Positions 1 to 6,410 of a DNA stretch of 64,000 nt are shown here, piece by piece. This stretch comes from Psychrobacillus psychrodurans (GTDB lineage Bacteria > Bacillota > Bacilli > Bacillales_A > Planococcaceae). The stretch's first letter is position 1, and every line of letters starts with the position of its first letter. The stretch is taken from NCBI GenBank assembly GCA_900114885.1, contig FOUN01000009.1:62001-126000 (forward strand), given 5' to 3'. The position numbers were made by a program, and so were the translations under genes. The notes below the pieces were generated by a model, which was not told where the DNA came from, made no database searches, and saw nothing but the letters and a program-made list of their open reading frames with translations.

Positions 1-689
1 ATAGTAACCGCTCCAAATATAATGGAAGCAACTAACATAAGAACACTACATTTATACAAATGTGGATTTTTTACTAACTGACTAAATGAATTAAACATAC
101 TTCCACCCTGCTCAGCCATTTTTGTAGGTCGGGTTTCGGCATTATTCATTTTAGTACTGTATCCAAATACTCCAGTTATGATAGCAATTGTTACCATCAC
201 TACTGCAAAGTACTCCATTCCTCCTTGCCAAATTCCTAATGCCAATAAAGGTCCAATAATACCTGGTATATAAGAAAATAAAGAATAAAGTGATATTCCC
301 TGTGAACGATCTTTTTCTGGTAGTGCATCAATAATTCCGATCTGTAATGCCATTGAAAAAAAAGCTGTTGAGACTCCTTGTAACATACGAGCAATCAAAA
401 ACCCACCAAGACCAGTTAATGTATATAATATTAAAGCAAATCCATTAATAATAAGAATAACTCTCAACACTTTTATGGGGCCATGTTTTTGAATATAATG
501 ACCTGCCCATGGTCTAAAAAACATGGTAGTAAACAAATATGCCCCCATGATCAAACCTATTGTTGTATTAGTTGCTCCTAGGGCACCCCCTTGTAAAGGA
601 ATAATAACATTTAGTATAGAATTGGCACTAAAATAAAGTAGTACCAGCAAATATAATCGTATAAATGGCCAAGACATAGCTCCACTCAC
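1..689 (-). CDS. cntE: MFS exporter, CntE-like (opine metallophore export), 3' part outside the window
   Basis: Open frame from a GTG at 689 (GGAGG about 11 bases upstream) running off the left edge; about 229 residues are visible. The N-terminus (SGAMSWPFIRLYLLVLLYF) and the stretches GATNTTIGLIMGAY, FFRPWAG, GPIKVLR and FFSMALQIGIIDALPE are typical MFS helices and loops. From memory they match Staphylococcus aureus CntE, the staphylopine exporter, closely. At least six hydrophobic segments are visible. It is the last gene of an A-B-C-D-F-E operon, 52 bases after the cntF-like gene, the same order as in S. aureus. Export of an opine-type metallophore is inferred from sequence and position. 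A generic drug/H+ antiporter is the less likely alternative. Confidence 0.82.
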   Translation of the reverse strand, partial: MSGAMSWPFIRLYLLVLLYFSANSILNVIIPLQGGALGATNTTIGLIMGAYLFTTMFFRPWAGHYIQKHGPIKVLRVILIINGFALILYTLTGLGGFLIARMLQGVSTAFFSMALQIGIIDALPEKDRSQGISLYSLFSYIPGIIGPLLALGIWQGGMEYFAVVMVTIAIITGVFGYSTKMNNAETRPTKMAEQGGSMFNSFSQLVKNPHLYKCSVLMLVASIIFGAVT

Positions 690-741
690 AAGTTTTTCTC
701 CTCCAAACTATTAAAAATTATGTACTTATGGCTTTACCTGG

Positions 742-1488
742 TTAAAACGTTATCAACGACTTTAGTAATTTTCTTGCATAGACAGATTTAACGTCCTTCA
801 AATGTTCAATTTCCACGATTTCTTCTATTTGTCCATCCTTAAAAATAATGACTCTGTCGCAAATATAAGCAGCAGCCTGTATATCATGAGTGATAAAAAC
901 ATAACTCATATTGTAGATTCTTTTTAAATCCTTGAGCAATTCAAGCACTTGTATTTGAACAGATACATCTAATGAACTGATTGCTTCATCTAATAAAATA
1001 CATTTTGGTTCTGTTGAGATAGCTCTTGCAATACAAACTCTTTGAATCTCTCCTCCTGATAACTCATGAGAATATTTGTTTCGATAAGACGAAGGCAGTC
1101 CAACTTGATTTAATAGAGTAGTAATCTTGTCTATATTCTCCTTTTTACTCTTGTTTTGAATCTTCAATGGCTCCAAGATCGCCTCTTCAACAGTAAAAAA
1201 AGGGTTAATGGAAGATTTGTAGTCTTGAAAAACAGCGCTTATATTACCTAATCTCACTCTTCTGTCTTCTACATTCATACCATCAATCAAAACCGTCCCA
1301 CAATCTGGCTTTTCAATTCCCAACATCAAACGCCCTAAAGTTGATTTACCACTGCCACTTTCTCCAATGATACCAAGACACTCTCTACTTCTACATTCGA
1401 GGCTAACATTCTTTAAAATAATCTGCCTTTCCGAAGAAAATAACCCGTTTTTTTTATAGGATTTTTGCACTTTATCAACTTTCAGCAA
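742..1488 (-). CDS. cntF: ABC transporter ATPase, CntF-like
   Basis: ATPase of the nickel/oligopeptide (Opp/Dpp/Nik) type, 248 residues. Walker A GESGSGKST (about 42-50), signature LSGGEIQR (about 143-150), Walker B CILLDEA with the catalytic Glu, and the switch His in FITHD are all present. The start is TTG at 1488, directly after the TAG stop of the preceding ATPase, with a GGGAGGG ribosome site inside the end of that gene, so the two are translationally coupled. It should pair with the CntD-like ATPase to energise the two permeases. It is shorter than many OppF proteins because the C-terminal oligopeptide extension is absent, as in NikE/CntF. Confidence 0.85.
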   Translation of the reverse strand: MLKVDKVQKSYKKNGLFSSERQIILKNVSLECRSRECLGIIGESGSGKSTLGRLMLGIEKPDCGTVLIDGMNVEDRRVRLGNISAVFQDYKSSINPFFTVEEAILEPLKIQNKSKKENIDKITTLLNQVGLPSSYRNKYSHELSGGEIQRVCIARAISTEPKCILLDEAISSLDVSVQIQVLELLKDLKRIYNMSYVFITHDIQAAAYICDRVIIFKDGQIEEIVEIEHLKDVKSVYARKLLKSLITF

Positions 1489-2301
1489 CTATTGTCCCTC
1501 CCCCATAATCCTCTTAAAGTTATTACTCAGAGCCATTCTTGTAGAAACTAGGTATTTTGTATATTCATGTTTTGCTCCTGAAAAAATTTTTTCAGTATTA
1601 CCGCTTTCAATGATTTTTCCATCCTTCATCACTAAAACTTCATCAGCAATTTTCCTTACAACACCTAAATCGTGTGAAATAAAAATCATGGAACAACCAA
1701 TTCTTTCACGTAAGTTAATAAATTGGTCAACTACTTCAAATTGGGAGATGGTATCTAGTGCTGTTGTCGGTTCATCGGCGATAATAATATCTGGCTCTAG
1801 CACAATGGCCAACGCAATCATAATGCGTTGTAGCATCCCACCCGATAACTGATGTGGATACTTATTCATAATTTCTGTAGGATTTATTAACATGACACTT
1901 TCCATGGCACTTTTCATTCTTACTTCCGCTTCGTTTTTACTCCAATCGAAATGTTCAGCAAGTGTTTCCCTTAGATGTACACCGACTACACAGGAGGGGT
2001 CGAATGCAGTCATTCCATTTTGTAGAATCATGCAAAGATTTTTTCCCCTTTTTTTTCTCAACTCTTTTGTGGAAAGTTGGTTTATGTTCTCCCCTTTAAA
2101 AATTATATCTCCCGATTGTTGAAGTGAAGTGCTGTTTAATCTCATGATTGCCCTACAAGTTACAGACTTACCACTACCACTTTCTCCTACAATCGCTAGG
2201 CAGCTTCCTGCTTTTAAATCAAATGAACTATTTTGAATGATCTTTTTCCCAGAAACTATATCCCATACCATTAAGTTTTTAACCTCTAGTATATTCTTCA
2301 T
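1489..2301 (-). CDS. cntD: ABC transporter ATPase, CntD-like
   Basis: First of two ATPases of the importer, 270 residues. Walker A GESGSGKSV (about 38-46), signature LSGGMLQR (about 154-161), Walker B IIIADEPTTALD and switch His in FISHD are visible. The start ATG at 2301 follows the TAG of the cntC-like gene immediately, with AGAGGT upstream. The Dpp/Nik/Cnt family couples ATP hydrolysis to import of metal complexes or peptides. Here the flanking CntA- and CntE-like genes point to metal-opine complexes. Confidence 0.85.
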   Translation of the reverse strand: MKNILEVKNLMVWDIVSGKKIIQNSSFDLKAGSCLAIVGESGSGKSVTCRAIMRLNSTSLQQSGDIIFKGENINQLSTKELRKKRGKNLCMILQNGMTAFDPSCVVGVHLRETLAEHFDWSKNEAEVRMKSAMESVMLINPTEIMNKYPHQLSGGMLQRIMIALAIVLEPDIIIADEPTTALDTISQFEVVDQFINLRERIGCSMIFISHDLGVVRKIADEVLVMKDGKIIESGNTEKIFSGAKHEYTKYLVSTRMALSNNFKRIMGEGQ

Positions 2302-3198
2302 CTAATTCGCTACCTCTTTTTCTCGAACCTTTACAGCAGAATAAGGAGAATTTTCTTTGTACTTATTTTTAGAGATTACTAGTTTTGGGTCTAGAGCAAC
2401 TTGAAGTGAGTCAGATAGAAAATTGAATGCCGATACCACAATGACAATCGCTAATCCGGGAGCCAACATTAATTCCGGTCTTGTGAACATAACTTCCCTC
2501 GCTTCATTCAACATCATTCCCCATTCTGGATTTGGGGCTTGAATTCCTAAACCTAAGAATGAAAAACCAGAAATTTGCAAGATCATTGATCCTATAGATC
2601 CGCTCGAAATCACTGCGATATCAGAGAAGGTAACCGGAACTATATGTTTGAAAATTATTTTAAAATCACTAATACCCGTTGCTTTAGAAAACTTCACATA
2701 ATCCAATTCGGCATACTGCATAACAGAAGTTCTAATAACTCGAGCAAACCAAGCCCATTTTATCAAAGCAAATGCAATTAGGATATTTTCAAGGCCTACC
2801 CCCAATATTCCAATAACCGCAAGCGCCATAACGTAACCAGGAAAAGAAAGCATCGTGTCACATATTCTCATAATTATTGCATCGATTTTCCCTCTAAAGT
2901 AACCAGCCAGAAAACCTAGAATGGCACCAGCTAAAACAGATATAAACAGAACAACTAAAACCCATAATACACTTGGTCGAATTCCATATATAATTCTGGA
3001 TAAAATACATCTTCCTAGATGGTCATTACCTAATAAGTGTTCCCATGAAGGTGAAGCGTATCTAAGACTCATGTTGATTTCATTAGGATCAAATGGTGCA
3101 AATAATGGTGCGAAAATACCAGCAATAATTGTGACAGCAATGATTAATAATGATATCGTAGCTAACCTATCTCTACTTAAGTTTCTCAGTATTCTCAT
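2302..3198 (-). CDS. cntC: ABC transporter permease, CntC-like
   Basis: Inner-membrane permease of the DppC/NikC family, 298 residues. It has an N-terminal TM segment (about 12-33), a further five predicted TM segments, and the cytoplasmic EAA-type loop around YVKFSKATGISDFKIIFKHI that contacts the ATPase. The extracytoplasmic loop LLGNDHLGRCILSRIIYGIR is typical of the DppC subfamily. The ATG overlaps the end of the cntB-like gene (TTTAA-ATG), so the two are coupled. It forms the translocation pore with the CntB-like protein. Confidence 0.84.
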   Translation of the reverse strand: MRILRNLSRDRLATISLLIIAVTIIAGIFAPLFAPFDPNEINMSLRYASPSWEHLLGNDHLGRCILSRIIYGIRPSVLWVLVVLFISVLAGAILGFLAGYFRGKIDAIIMRICDTMLSFPGYVMALAVIGILGVGLENILIAFALIKWAWFARVIRTSVMQYAELDYVKFSKATGISDFKIIFKHIVPVTFSDIAVISSGSIGSMILQISGFSFLGLGIQAPNPEWGMMLNEAREVMFTRPELMLAPGLAIVIVVSAFNFLSDSLQVALDPKLVISKNKYKENSPYSAVKVREKEVAN

Positions 3199-4131
3199 TT
3201 AAAGATCATTCCTTAACTTAGGATTCATAAAAGCATTAATAATATCGGAGATTGTATTAAACAAAACAAAGGCAGCTGCTAATATAAGCACATATGCTTG
3301 AATAATAGGAAAGTCTCTACCTAGAATTGCTTTCACACTTAGACTTCCTAATCCTGGCCACGCAAAAACATTTTCTATAACGACTGTACTTCCCAATATG
3401 ATAGGTATTGCCATACCAAATATTGAAATGGATACTTGCAATGAATTCCTTAATATATGCATGGTAATTTTCTTCTCAGGCAAACCGGATGCCCTTCCAT
3501 ACAAGACATAATCCTCATTTAAATTGTTTAACATGGATGATCTAATATTTCTAAAATATATACCAGCATAACTTATCGTGATAACAATAACCGGTAAGAT
3601 ATAACTGCTATACGAAACCATTCCACTTGTTGGTAATAAGTCTAATTTAACGGAGACATACCAAATCATAATTGTCGCTAACCAGTAGGACGGCATTGCT
3701 GTTAAAACAAACGAAAATCCTCTTATTGATTTATCGATTACTTGCCCTTCCTTTAACGCACAAGTAACTCCTAATAATATGGACATAAAGATAATGGCAA
3801 TAGATGAAATTAACGTTAACTTTAAGGTATTTAAGAATGCTGGACCTATCAGTGACCATACAGGTTTACCATTAATGTATGATTCTCCAAAGTCCAACTG
3901 TAAGGAGGAAATGAACCAATCAAAATAACGTAAGATAAATGGCTTATCTAGCCCCAACTCTTCTTTTGTTTGTTCTAATAATTCTTCTGTTATCTCTGGA
4001 ACACCTTGCGCTTGTAATACCACTTCAGCTGGATCTAAAGGAGAAAGATTAATTAAGACAAACGTCAAAAATGAAATGATTAAAAGTAAAGGGACGGATA
4101 CGAGGATCCTTTTAACAATATAACTTCCCAC
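3199..4131 (-). CDS. cntB: ABC transporter permease, CntB-like
   Basis: Permease of the DppB/NikB family with six TM segments, the first starting at IVKRILVSVPLLLIISF. The EAA-type loop is ASGLPEKKITMHILRNSL. The frame is open from an ATG at 4149, but the AAGGAGA ribosome site lies inside those first codons, so the GTG at 4131 is the better start (310 residues). It is 93 bases downstream of the binding-protein gene, separated by a hairpin, which is usual where the binding protein must be made in excess. Import of an opine-metal complex is inferred from the operon. Confidence 0.82.
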   Translation of the reverse strand: MGSYIVKRILVSVPLLLIISFLTFVLINLSPLDPAEVVLQAQGVPEITEELLEQTKEELGLDKPFILRYFDWFISSLQLDFGESYINGKPVWSLIGPAFLNTLKLTLISSIAIIFMSILLGVTCALKEGQVIDKSIRGFSFVLTAMPSYWLATIMIWYVSVKLDLLPTSGMVSYSSYILPVIVITISYAGIYFRNIRSSMLNNLNEDYVLYGRASGLPEKKITMHILRNSLQVSISIFGMAIPIILGSTVVIENVFAWPGLGSLSVKAILGRDFPIIQAYVLILAAAFVLFNTISDIINAFMNPKLRNDL

Positions 4132-4192
4132 AGCAAATCTCCTTTCCATTTAACTATCAAACTTTAAACATTTATTCTTTTTTGCTAGTAAA

Positions 4193-4211
4193 AGAGGGGG
4201 AAATCCCCTCT
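4193..4211 (-). terminator. Intra-operon hairpin between cntA and cntB
   Basis: A 7-bp perfect stem (AGAGGGG/CCCCTCT) with a 5-base loop, followed on the minus strand by only three T residues. It is too weak for full termination and more likely a partial terminator or 3'-end stabiliser that raises binding-protein mRNA over the rest of the operon. Confidence 0.5.
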
Positions 4212-4224
4212 CTTATTAATATTT

Positions 4225-5844
4225 TTACTTAAAGTTCATCAACTCAAATGGAAGCTCAAATTGAGTTTGCTTGAATGATATTCCTTTTAAATTTTGTGGG
4301 GCTACTACAGTGACACTTCCATTTGAAATAGGGATAAAAACTGCTTCTTCATGAACAATTGTCAAAATATCAGCGTACAATGATTTTCTAGTTTCTTCAT
4401 TTGTCGAGACCATAATTTGTTCAATTTTCTTGTAAAGTTCATCTGCATGTTCAATGCCTTTTGTCGTGTGCAAATAAGATGCCTCAGAAGTAAAAGCTGA
4501 GATTGTACTTTGTGGGTCATACGCTAGCCCCCAGGTTTGATTGAATAATAAATCATAGTCGCCGGTAGATCTTCTATTAGCTATTGAAGTTGACTCTTCA
4601 CCTATAATCTCCAGATGAAGGCCAATCTCTTCTAAAGAGGCTTGTATAAATTCAGCCTGGGTTTTTTGAGAGGAAGAATTGCTATCATAATAGAGCTTCA
4701 TAACTAATTTTTTTCCTTCTTTGGTTCTAACTTCATCTCCATTTTCTAGTTTCCATCCATCTTTTTCTAGAATATCTTTGGCTTTTTCTACATCATAGCC
4801 TCGCTCCTTTAAGTCAACATTGGCATAGTTTACATTTGGTGAAAATAGTGTATTAGCCACTGACTCTGTACCATTAAAGATATCCTTACTAATTGTTTCT
4901 CTATCAATTGAGTACCATATGGCTTCACGAACCGCTATTTCACTTATTGGATTATCTTGTTTACTGCTATTGGCTACTATCATTTTAGTGTTCATTGGTT
5001 CACTTCTTATAAGTTGATATTCTCCGGAATCGACTAATTGATTCATGGGTTCGATAGCGAGACTATCTGCTCCACGATCATCTGTAAATACAAAATTGAC
5101 TTCTCCTTTTTGTAATGCTAGCAATGTCGTTTCCCCAGCAGGAAGTACTTTTGACGTAATTTTTTTTATTTCAGGTGTTCCATTCCAGTAGTCTTCATTT
5201 GCTTCAAAAGTGGCAAATTCATCGATTTTATGTTCTGTGAGCATATATGGACCAGTACCGTTATAGCCACTTACGCCATCTTTCGTTTCCCCATTTTTAA
5301 AATCTTTTGGTGATATGAATACATAAGGTCTCGTCATAGACAATTCAGCCAAAGTTGGATAGTATGTTTCGGACAGTGCTAATTCAACTGTGAACTCATC
5401 TACTACATTCACACTTTCAATTTTTGTAGATAACTTAATCCAGGCATGCTTCTCTGCATTATTTTGTACAGCCTCAATATTTTTCTTCACTGCCTCTGCG
5501 TTAAACAGCACCCCATCATGAAATTTCACATCTTGTCTTAAAAAGAACGTGTATATTTTTCCATCTTCTGAAACTTCCCAAGACTCAGCGAGTAAAGGTT
5601 TGATCCCATCTTCCGTGTTTTCAACCAAGGATTCATAGACCATCCCTTGTGCCGGCATTGAACCAGAGTACAAATGTGGGTTCATATCATTAATATCTTT
5701 AGCAGATGCATAAACAATCTCATTTTCATTATTAGCAGAATCACCCGTTTTCTCATTATTAGAACTTTCAGCTGAGCAAGCCGCCAAAATGGATATAATC
5801 AATAATATTAAACACACTAACTTAAACTTTTTCATTAACAACAT
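4225..5844 (-). CDS. cntA: Metallophore/nickel-type solute-binding lipoprotein, CntA-like
   Basis: 539-residue SBP_bac_5 family lipoprotein with a signal peptide ending in the lipobox LAAC (Cys about 23). Segments such as KDINDMNPHLYSGSM, DGIKPLLAESWEVSEDGK, KNGETKDGVSGYNGTGPY, FTDDRGADSL and FNQTWGLAYDPQSTI agree, from memory, with S. aureus CntA over the whole length. That is much closer than generic OppA/DppA. The start is ATG 5844 (or 5835) behind AAGGGGAG. It is the first gene of the operon, about 190 bases downstream of a Zur-like palindrome. In the family it binds a metal-staphylopine type complex outside the membrane. The exact opine and metal are not deducible here. Confidence 0.85.
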   Translation of the reverse strand: MLLMKKFKLVCLILLIISILAACSAESSNNEKTGDSANNENEIVYASAKDINDMNPHLYSGSMPAQGMVYESLVENTEDGIKPLLAESWEVSEDGKIYTFFLRQDVKFHDGVLFNAEAVKKNIEAVQNNAEKHAWIKLSTKIESVNVVDEFTVELALSETYYPTLAELSMTRPYVFISPKDFKNGETKDGVSGYNGTGPYMLTEHKIDEFATFEANEDYWNGTPEIKKITSKVLPAGETTLLALQKGEVNFVFTDDRGADSLAIEPMNQLVDSGEYQLIRSEPMNTKMIVANSSKQDNPISEIAVREAIWYSIDRETISKDIFNGTESVANTLFSPNVNYANVDLKERGYDVEKAKDILEKDGWKLENGDEVRTKEGKKLVMKLYYDSNSSSQKTQAEFIQASLEEIGLHLEIIGEESTSIANRRSTGDYDLLFNQTWGLAYDPQSTISAFTSEASYLHTTKGIEHADELYKKIEQIMVSTNEETRKSLYADILTIVHEEAVFIPISNGSVTVVAPQNLKGISFKQTQFELPFELMNFK

Positions 5845-6036
5845 ATTTCTCCCCTTCAGCCTTATTAATTTGAATTAACGCGTTTTAATGAGTTAACATG
5901 ATCTAACTTAAATTACTTCCACCTTCTAGAGGATTCCAGTGGTTGTCAGTATATGAACCTATTTTTTAAGTCGAGTCATATTTTCAATCGTTTGCTCCTA
6001 TACTATTTCCAATGATCCTTCCTTATAGAGTAATAT

Positions 6037-6069
6037 AATCGTAAATAGTAATGATTACTATTTACGATT
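6037..6069. promoter_or_regulatory. 33-bp perfect palindrome with Zur/Fur-like core, upstream of cntA
   Basis: Perfect inverted repeat of 16 bp around G6053. The inner 15 bp (6046-6060) read TAGTAAT-G-ATTACTA. That is the 7-1-7 layout of Bacillus Fur-family operators and matches the Zur consensus TCGTAATNATTACGA except for one position per half. The outer arms TCGTAAA...TTTACGA repeat the Zur half-site TCGTAA. A TTGTAA at 6071-6076 could be a minus-strand -35 box, putting the operator over the promoter of the cnt-like operon. Zinc-responsive repression is inferred; in S. aureus cnt is known to be under Fur and Zur. The remainder of 5845-6374 shows no supported gene. Confidence 0.7.
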
Positions 6070-6410
6070 TACAATTGAATTATAGCATTATATTCCATAT
6101 AGTCAATTCGTAAATTTCCACTAAATACAATTTTTTGTTTCTGCTGCCGCAAAAGGACATTCTTCATAGAGAACAACATTTTAATAGTGGTGTAGAGAAT
6201 CATAAGTGAATATTACTGATAAATAACAATAATGTTGTTTGAAAACGCAAGTTTTGCTATTCGTTTATCGGACCAGATGGTGAATACTTAGTGTATTAAA
6301 TATGCTAAAATAAAGAAATTGCAATGAAGAAAGTACTTAAAGTAACGGTGTTTTTAATTGAAATATAAAAAGATGTGAGTGAGTATATGGGTGAAATGGA
6401 GACATTTAAT

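What the first reader, a model, noticed from the sequence alone, without database searches (positions are those of the whole stretch)
1..5844. Complete cntABCDF-E opine-metallophore transport operon without visible synthesis genes
Gene order and sequence match the S. aureus staphylopine uptake/export operon. The three synthesis genes (cntK epimerase, cntL aminobutanoyl transferase, cntM opine dehydrogenase) that normally precede cntA are absent: the upstream 530 bases are non-coding and the next gene is an unrelated CPBP protease. The strain either carries cntKLM elsewhere (possibly left of the window) or imports metallophores made by others. Keeping the exporter CntE argues for synthesis somewhere.
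Basis: partly seen in the sequence, partly recalled or inferred. Interest (0 to 1): 0.75.

Follow-up and report, generated by a model that had tools for sequence, protein, structure and literature searches.

The report
Metallophore importer-exporter operon stripped of synthesis
A bacterium carries the pumps that take up and expel a zinc-carrying molecule but has cleanly lost the genes that make it, so it probably lives on molecules made by neighbours, and the same loss with the export pump kept is seen in other bacteria too.

Summary
Window 1-5844 (minus strand) carries cntA-B-C-D-F-E; cntE runs 487 nt past the left edge and is intact (391 aa). cntKLM are not beside it, and CntM, CntL and CntK were not found in the genome (4.0 Mb, 99.96% complete). 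New here: the 5' region is a deletion scar. Promoter and Zur-box sequence that precedes cntK in Sutcliffiella/Peribacillus/Metabacillus runs directly into the last ten codons of cntM and the cntM-cntA spacer. So the operon had cntKLM and lost them, keeping its promoter. The state recurs: 19 of 80 named relatives' loci lack cntKLM nearby and CntM genome-wide; a tree needs 13-14 changes (at least 11-12). cntE, the last gene, is present in 18 of those 19 (the other contig ends first), unbroken in 17, with dN/dS about 0.12 in two cntKLM-less sister pairs. 'Exporter kept, therefore synthesis somewhere' is thus not supported; use of others' metallophores is the better reading. Most likely mechanism (inferred): Zur-derepressed import of foreign staphylopine-type metal complexes, with CntE expelling the emptied carrier for reuse or detoxification. 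CntA-based cheating is already reported in Staphylococcus; the kept exporter and the scar are what I add.

The parts
1..689 (-). cntE, MFS opine-metallophore exporter (5' part; gene continues 487 nt left of the window, 391 aa in all, intact)
   Evidence: NF047574 412.1 bits, cut-off 235; rest in L001:19514-20000
742..1488 (-). cntF, second ATPase (by position)
   Evidence: ABC_tran 109 bits; no CntF-specific model over cut-off; 82-83% to the same-position gene in L055-L057
1489..2301 (-). cntD, ATPase
   Evidence: NF047578 472.1 bits, cut-off 380 (also NF047576 468.3, cut-off 385)
2302..3198 (-). cntC, permease
   Evidence: NF047573 499.5 bits, cut-off 440
3199..4149 (-). cntB, permease
   Evidence: NF045469 Opp1B 502.8 bits, cut-off 380; follows cntA in 80 of 80 loci
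4225..5844 (-). cntA, metallophore-binding lipoprotein
   Evidence: NF047575 973.6 bits, cut-off 800; 620 bits to S. aureus CntA structure 5YH8
5948..6013 (-). stretch homologous to the end of cntM plus the cntM-cntA spacer of cntKLM+ relatives
   Evidence: 79% over 68 nt to L055, E 9e-8, 50.0 bits; best of 100 shuffles 32.8
5984..6013 (-). relic of the last cntM codons (IGNSIGAND-stop; L055 reads IGKSIGTKQ...)
   Evidence: frame seen; alignment
6014..6015 (.). deletion junction where cntK, cntL and nearly all of cntM are missing
   Evidence: boundary between the two homologous stretches
6016..6116 (-). stretch homologous to the region upstream of cntK of cntKLM+ relatives
   Evidence: 78% over 73 nt to L056 (E 5e-11, 60.8 bits) and 76% over 94 nt to L059 (E 2e-10); best of 100 shuffles 33.7 bits
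6037..6069 (.). perfect 16-1-16 palindrome holding a Zur-type box TAGTAATCATTACTA
   Evidence: similar boxes before this genome's cobW/zagA-like, rpsN-like and znuA-like genes
6079..6106 (-). sigma-A-type promoter TTGACT-16-TATAAT
   Evidence: best-scoring of 30 promoter-like sites in L002, 11 of 12; the number 30 is not above shuffles (34.8), but this site aligns with relatives' cntK promoters

Best explanation
This is a cnt operon, probably Zur-controlled, that lost its three synthesis genes by a deletion from just before cntK to about a dozen codons before the end of cntM, so that the cntK promoter and operator now drive cntA directly (the scar shows this). Under zinc shortage the cell makes CntABCDF and imports metal complexes of staphylopine-type metallophores made by other bacteria (inferred). 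CntE then expels the emptied metallophore, which returns the borrowed carrier for another round and/or prevents its toxic build-up (inferred). That is why the last gene of the operon, whose loss would harm no downstream gene, is kept without synthesis (retention and purifying selection shown in relatives; role inferred).
For: Scar. No CntM/CntL/CntK found in own genome. Recurrence: 19 of 80 named loci without cntKLM nearby and without PF10100 in the genome; 13-14 changes on the ABCDF tree, at least 11-12 forced by starred branches. cntE in 18 of these 19 (L113 ends at its contig edge), unbroken in 17; dN/dS of cntE 0.117 (L060/L064) and 0.123 (L087/L103), pairs in which both members lack cntKLM. 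CntA not relaxed in cntKLM-less rows (median relative rate 0.91 against 0.97); the window differs at 3 of 270 columns that are 95% conserved in cntKLM+ rows. Zur-type box within 350 nt of cntA in 20 of 20 cntKLM-less loci, window included, at up to 3 mismatches; 0-9 of 200 mononucleotide shuffles as good. CntM of cntKLM+ relatives has Asp at the keto-acid position in 13 of 13 rows examined, pyruvate type by the rule in PMC7438024. Literature: cntE loss makes staphylopine accumulate and is toxic (PMC9598555 passages); the growth defect of the pseudopaline exporter mutant is suppressed when synthesis is removed (PMC5719457 passages); uptake followed by export of a metallophore is proposed for P. 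aeruginosa (PMC11481552 passages).
Against: No transport was measured; nothing shows which metallophore, if any, is bound. CntE evolves slightly faster in cntKLM-less rows (median relative rate 1.11, n=19, against 0.96, n=58; p 0.0015, rows not independent), which could mean weaker constraint or a changed substrate (CntB and CntD also rise a little, p about 0.02). In pair L087/L103 cntE has the highest dN/dS of the six genes. P. oceani (L125) has cntE split by a frameshift. CntA of cntKLM-less rows departs from the cntKLM+ consensus at a median of 7 of 270 conserved columns against 2.5 for cntKLM+ rows (consensus made from the latter), and residue 319 is Ser in 57 of 60 cntKLM+ but 9 of 20 cntKLM-less rows. 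In an even draw of 398 class genomes the state is rare: 2 of 42 genomes with CntA over cut-off lack PF10100. The window's Zur box has 2 mismatches to the Bacillus consensus (recalled), and such sites are not above the reversed-pattern control in this genome (32 against 46).
Confidence: 0.6

Rival explanations
1. The strain still makes an opine metallophore with enzymes encoded elsewhere or in an assembly gap, and cntE exports it as usual.
For: CntE is normally the exporter of a self-made metallophore; the assembly has 47 contigs; one relative with a cntKLM-less locus (L111, genome G426) carries a CntM and an adjoining CntL-like gene elsewhere, and G434 (L133) has a CntL-like protein of 156 bits without PF10100.
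Against: CntM, CntL and CntK not found in a 99.96% complete genome; the scar shows that the operon's own copies are gone. Of the 19 cntKLM-less genomes without PF10100, 15 have no CntL-profile hit at E<=0.001, three have partial hits of 21-38 bits and one (G434) the 156-bit hit.
Confidence: 0.08
2. cntE is a leftover under no or little selection; only the importer works (plain cheater).
For: CntE evolves a little faster in cntKLM-less rows and is frameshifted in L125.
Against: dN/dS 0.117 at dS 0.43 (importer genes of the same pair 0.086-0.163) and 0.123 at dS 0.47 (importer genes 0.052-0.112) in two pairs whose members both lack cntKLM; unbroken in 17 of 18.
Confidence: 0.15
3. The operon now handles another ligand, for example plant nicotianamine or metal-amino-acid complexes, or CntE a different substrate.
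For: Staphylopine is described as distantly related to plant nicotianamine (PMC5719457, abstract start in listing); some carriers' names suggest soil or plant sources; CntE relative rate up; residue 319 of CntA less fixed in cntKLM-less rows.
Against: CntA rate not raised; the window keeps 267 of 270 conserved columns, and no column cleanly separates the two groups.
Confidence: 0.17

Closest known systems
Staphylococcus aureus cntKLMABCDFE (staphylopine) operon
   Same: Order A-B-C-D-F-E, four Cnt-specific models over cut-off, zinc-responsive promoter (PMC9598555 passages)
   Different: No cntK, cntL, cntM; the cntK promoter is fused to cntA
Staphylopine 'cheater' Staphylococcus lugdunensis (PMC12709192, passages and section 7 read)
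   Same: CntA without synthesis genes, other species' metallophore presumed used
   Different: The parts I read count cntE with the synthesis genes (cntKLME) and do not say whether S. lugdunensis keeps it; here cntE is kept, in several genera, with a deletion scar in the window
Bacillota opine zincophore clusters, cluster 1 of Morey & Kehl-Fie (PMC7438024, Results read)
   Same: Same transporter types (dipeptide/oligopeptide-type ABC plus MFS) in Bacillaceae and Paenibacillaceae
   Different: That survey was seeded with CntM and so cannot see operons that lost cntM
Pyoverdine recycling and pyochelin import/export in Pseudomonas aeruginosa
   Same: Import of a metallophore coupled to later export of the carrier
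   Different: Different pumps, and the organism makes the compound itself (pyoverdine recalled; PMC11481552 passages seen)

Membership tests
CntABCDF-E opine-metallophore transport system | CntA-type, not NikA-type, binding protein | tested here: met
   973.6 bits, cut-off 800; 620 against 379 bits to CntA and NikA structures; only 1 of 19 genus genomes, the own, passes the cut-off
CntABCDF-E opine-metallophore transport system | CntC, CntD and CntE over curated cut-offs | tested here: met
   499.5/440, 472.1/380, 412.1/235
CntABCDF-E opine-metallophore transport system | CntB and CntF specific models | tested here: inconclusive
   CntB matches only Opp1B over cut-off; CntF-position protein passes no specific cut-off; positions and identity to relatives fit
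CntABCDF-E opine-metallophore transport system | binds and imports an opine metallophore-metal complex | not testable with these tools
   needs binding or uptake assay
opine zincophore biosynthetic gene cluster (PMC7438024: CntL next to CntM with import and export genes) | CntM (PF10100) | tested here: not met
   0 of 1 own genome, 0 of 19 genus; found in 52 of 398 class genomes
opine zincophore biosynthetic gene cluster (PMC7438024: CntL next to CntM with import and export genes) | CntL (NAS-like) | tested here: not met
   none at E<=0.001 in the own genome; 356-445 bits in 4 of 4 controls; one search gave one 15.7-bit fragment with four stops at E 0.0098
metallophore cheater (uptake without synthesis) | importer present, synthesis genes absent from the genome | tested here: met
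   (CntK without positive control)
metallophore cheater (uptake without synthesis) | grows on a foreign metallophore | not testable with these tools
   needs culture
Zur regulon | Zur-type operator at the promoter | tested here: inconclusive
   33-bp palindrome just after a sigma-A-type promoter, core like the boxes before this genome's cobW-like, rpsN-like and znuA-like genes, but 2 mismatches to the recalled consensus and no excess of such sites over the control; no binding test

The most novel reading that the evidence does not exclude
Non-producers as a distinct, repeatedly evolved lifestyle with a dedicated borrow-and-return pump: cntABCDF imports foreign opine metallophores and CntE, no longer an exporter of a product, is kept by selection as a recycling or detoxifying pump, so that these bacteria reuse stolen carriers and give them back to the medium rather than only consuming them.
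Probability: 0.45. Interest if true: 0.7.

Novelty: new variant of a known kind. Interest (0 to 1): 0.52.

Why it matters
Opine zincophores are usually discussed as made and reclaimed by the same cell, and the two surveys I saw started from CntM (PMC7438024) or from known staphylococcal synthesis genes and receptors (PMC12709192). A recurrent class of operons that keep both pumps and no synthesis separates two possible jobs of CntE (export of product, disposal of imported carrier) by natural experiment, and makes the question whether CntE recycles the metallophore directly testable. It also shows how a producer can become a cheater by one deletion while keeping the promoter of the lost genes.

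Tried and rejected
Protein-level search for cntKLM fossils upstream of cntA with ORFs of L003-L030: no significant hit; the relic appeared only in DNA comparison with close relatives. Rfam on L002: no match. tRNA in window: none. Flanking CPBP protease gene as a marker of an empty site: found in 1 of 19 genus genomes (own), so no empty site could be shown. GC content as a sign of foreign origin: operon 35.0%, rest of window 34.1%; third-position GC of cntABCDF 28-31% against 25.7% median of 31 long host frames; weak, not used. A common substitute synthesis gene near cntKLM-less operons: none seen to recur among the up to 6 genes upstream and 4 downstream compared; what recurs near some are zinc-starvation genes (names by eye). 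CntA columns separating the two groups: none clean. dN/dS: cntD failed for all four window pairs and cntA for one, four genes failed for L088/L133, and L095/L108 gave three of six. G375, at first taken as a further case, is the same genome as L127 (90 of 90 sampled 40-mers). The paper search (20 of 32, 12 of 26, 15 of 163, 12 of 37, 10 of 15 and 5 of 5 papers listed) showed no title or abstract start on cntABCDFE operons without cntKLM outside Staphylococcus; the library lacks most subscription papers.
Full report
What is there. On the minus strand of window 1-5844 lie six ORFs in the order cntA, cntB, cntC, cntD, cntF, cntE. CntA, CntC, CntD and CntE pass the curated cut-offs of their NCBIfam models; CntB reaches only the generic Opp1B model and the CntF-position ATPase passes no specific cut-off. 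CntA matches S. aureus CntA structures with 620 bits and NikA with 379 bits (the S. aureus origin of 5YH8/5YHE is recalled). The window is G000:C23:62001-126000 of a 4.0-Mb, 47-contig, 99.96% complete genome. cntE is cut by the window's left edge; with 487 nt from L001 it is an intact 391-aa frame.

No synthesis genes. tblastn with CntK, CntL and CntM of relatives finds nothing at E<=0.001 in the 20 kb left of the window or in the 64-kb window. PF10100 (CntM) is absent from the own genome and from all 19 genomes of the genus searched; in an even draw of 398 genomes of the class the same search finds it in 52, 49 over cut-off. A CntL profile finds nothing in the own genome at E<=0.001 (one search gave one fragment of 15.7 bits at E 0.0098 with four stops), and gives 356-445 bits in the four cntKLM+ controls. 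A CntK query finds nothing at E<=0.01, without a positive control. CntA over cut-off occurs in 1 of 19 genus genomes, the own.

The scar. Compared with 57 cntKLM+ loci, the 530 nt upstream of cntA show two homologous parts. Window 6116-6016 matches the region upstream of cntK: 78% over 73 nt in Sutcliffiella horikoshii L056 (E 5e-11, 60.8 bits) and 76% over 94 nt in Peribacillus L059. Window 6013-5948 matches the end of cntM and the cntM-cntA spacer: 79% over 68 nt in Metabacillus arenae L055 (E 9e-8, 50.0 bits) and 76% over 67 nt in L056 (E 2e-4). The best of 100 dinucleotide shuffles gave 33.7 and 32.8 bits; the interior of cntKLM gave at best 26.5 bits (E 1.0), i.e. nothing. The relic reads IGNSIGAND-stop where L055 reads IGKSIGTKQLK-stop. 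So cntK, cntL and nearly all of cntM were deleted, and the cntK promoter (TTGACT-16-TATAAT, 6106-6079) with its palindromic operator (6069-6037) now stands before cntA. In Paenibacillus harenae (L066) parts of cntL and cntM remain, one with a stop: another decay, differently placed. In the other cntKLM-less loci the same comparison gave no cntM relic; what matched was mostly the box-bearing promoter or spacer.

Zinc control. The operator core TAGTAATCATTACTA resembles boxes before this genome's CobW/ZagA-like GTPase (TCGTAATCATTACTA), an S14-type ribosomal protein (ACGTAATTATTACGA) and a ZnuA-like protein (ACGTAATCATTACTA) (gene names by eye from the translations, consensus recalled). Against: as a set, sites with up to two mismatches are not more frequent than the reversed control (32 against 46), and the two other one-mismatch sites do not lie at zinc genes. 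In 20 of 20 cntKLM-less loci, window included, a box with up to 3 mismatches lies within 350 nt of cntA, reached by 0-9 of 200 mononucleotide shuffles each. CobW-like genes lie near cnt in L058, L060, L061 and L064 and S14-like genes in L060, L064 and L070 (by eye); a complete nine-gene operon on a Priestia plasmid lies beside S14 and type B L31 genes.

A recurrent state. A scan seeded with window CntA kept the best 80 of 151 relatives, so it is biased towards this CntA. In 57 loci cntKLM precede cntA, in two (L102, L126) they are divergent, in L066 they are decayed, and in 20 none is seen in the flank held. PF10100 is absent from 19 of these 20 genomes; L111's genome has a CntM elsewhere. Of the 19, 15 have no CntL-profile hit at E<=0.001; G434 has 156 bits, G429 38, G420 23 and G415 21 bits. 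On a tree of 83 ABCDF rows the 20 cntKLM-less rows (19 plus window) need 14 changes, at least 12 forced by starred branches; for the cntKLM+ group 14 and 11; counted as a two-state trait without L111 and L066, 13 (quick tree, SH-aLRT only). The count cannot tell loss from gain; the scar shows loss for the window. The window nests with L055, L056 and L057, all cntKLM+, at 98*, at 86% identity to L055. In the even class draw 40 of 42 genomes with CntA over cut-off have PF10100; the two without are the own and G375. G375 proved to be the genome of L127, already among the 19; it keeps cntE.

The exporter. Of the 19, cntE is found in 18 (L113 ends at its contig edge) and unbroken in 17; L125 is split by a frameshift. 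In two sister pairs in which both members lack cntKLM, dN/dS of cntE is 0.117 (dS 0.43; importer genes 0.086-0.163) and 0.123 (dS 0.47; importer genes 0.052-0.112). For the window itself against L055, L056 and L057, cntE gives 0.093, 0.064 and 0.087, but that covers time before the loss as well. Since cntE is the last gene, its loss would harm no downstream gene. Against full constancy: its relative rate is a little higher in cntKLM-less rows (1.11, n=19, against 0.96, n=58, p 0.0015, rows not independent), as are those of CntB and CntD (p about 0.02), while that of CntA is a little lower (0.91 against 0.97, p 0.001).

The receptor. The window's CntA keeps 267 of 270 columns that are 95% conserved in 60 cntKLM+ rows. 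cntKLM-less rows depart at a median of 7 of these columns against 2.5 (maximum 25) in the cntKLM+ rows from which the consensus was made; the clearest difference in the body of the protein is residue 319, Ser in 57 of 60 against 9 of 20. I had no coordinates of the binding pocket; the one contact named in PMC12709192, N448 of S. aureus, is variable in both groups (mapping by the alignment).

Mechanism. Shown: deletion, loss of synthesis, conserved CntA, retained and constrained cntE in relatives. Inferred: under zinc shortage the operon imports others' opine-metal complexes. The lost CntM was probably of the pyruvate type, since 13 of 13 CntM rows examined (of 14 loci asked for; L110 has none; about 60 were at hand) have Asp in a YxGDTR motif, which I take to be position 150 of S. 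aureus CntM by alignment to a staphylococcus-like row (numbering recalled; rule from PMC7438024). CntE then returns or disposes of the emptied carrier. This fits reports that staphylopine build-up without CntE is toxic and not only by chelation (PMC9598555 passages; the primary papers were not read), that a double mutant without synthesis suppresses the growth defect of a pseudopaline-exporter mutant (PMC5719457 passages) and that P. aeruginosa may import and then expel a metallophore (PMC11481552 passages).

What is known. Staphylopine cheating, CntA without synthesis genes, is reported for S. lugdunensis (PMC12709192, section 7); the parts I read group cntE with synthesis. The CntM-seeded survey PMC7438024 (Results) would not see these operons. 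In the listings of six searches I saw no paper on cntABCDFE without cntKLM outside Staphylococcus; most listings were capped and the library lacks most subscription papers. Verdict: a real feature, a new variant of a known kind.

Noticed in passing
L066 (Paenibacillus harenae), upstream of cntA: Fragments of cntL and cntM, one with a stop: a producer operon caught while decaying (described only).
   Followed up: partly
L102 and L126 (Paenibacillus arenilitoris, P. naphthalenovorans), from about 6.7 kb: cntKLM lie divergently from cntA-F-E instead of in front of it in the same direction.
   Followed up: no
G434:C22:58614-59339 (genome of L133, P. solanacearum): A CntL-like protein (156 bits) in a genome without PF10100: possible nicotianamine-type synthase without opine dehydrogenase.
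   Followed up: no
G426:C45:189663-191745 (genome of L111, P. turpanensis): A CntM with an adjoining CntL-like gene away from a cntABCDFE operon that has no cntKLM beside it.
   Followed up: no
L184 (Priestia sp. J2 plasmid pA): A complete nine-gene cnt operon on a plasmid, next to type B L31, S14 and permease genes: a zinc island that could move between species (typed non-mobilizable by PLSDB).
   Followed up: partly
L058, L060, L061, L064, L070: cntKLM-less cnt operons lie near CobW/ZagA-like, S14-like or permease genes, a zinc-starvation neighbourhood (by eye).
   Followed up: partly
L125, 15047-16214: cntE of Paenibacillus oceani (cntKLM-less) is split by a frameshift: the one exception among 18, or a sequencing error.
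   Followed up: no
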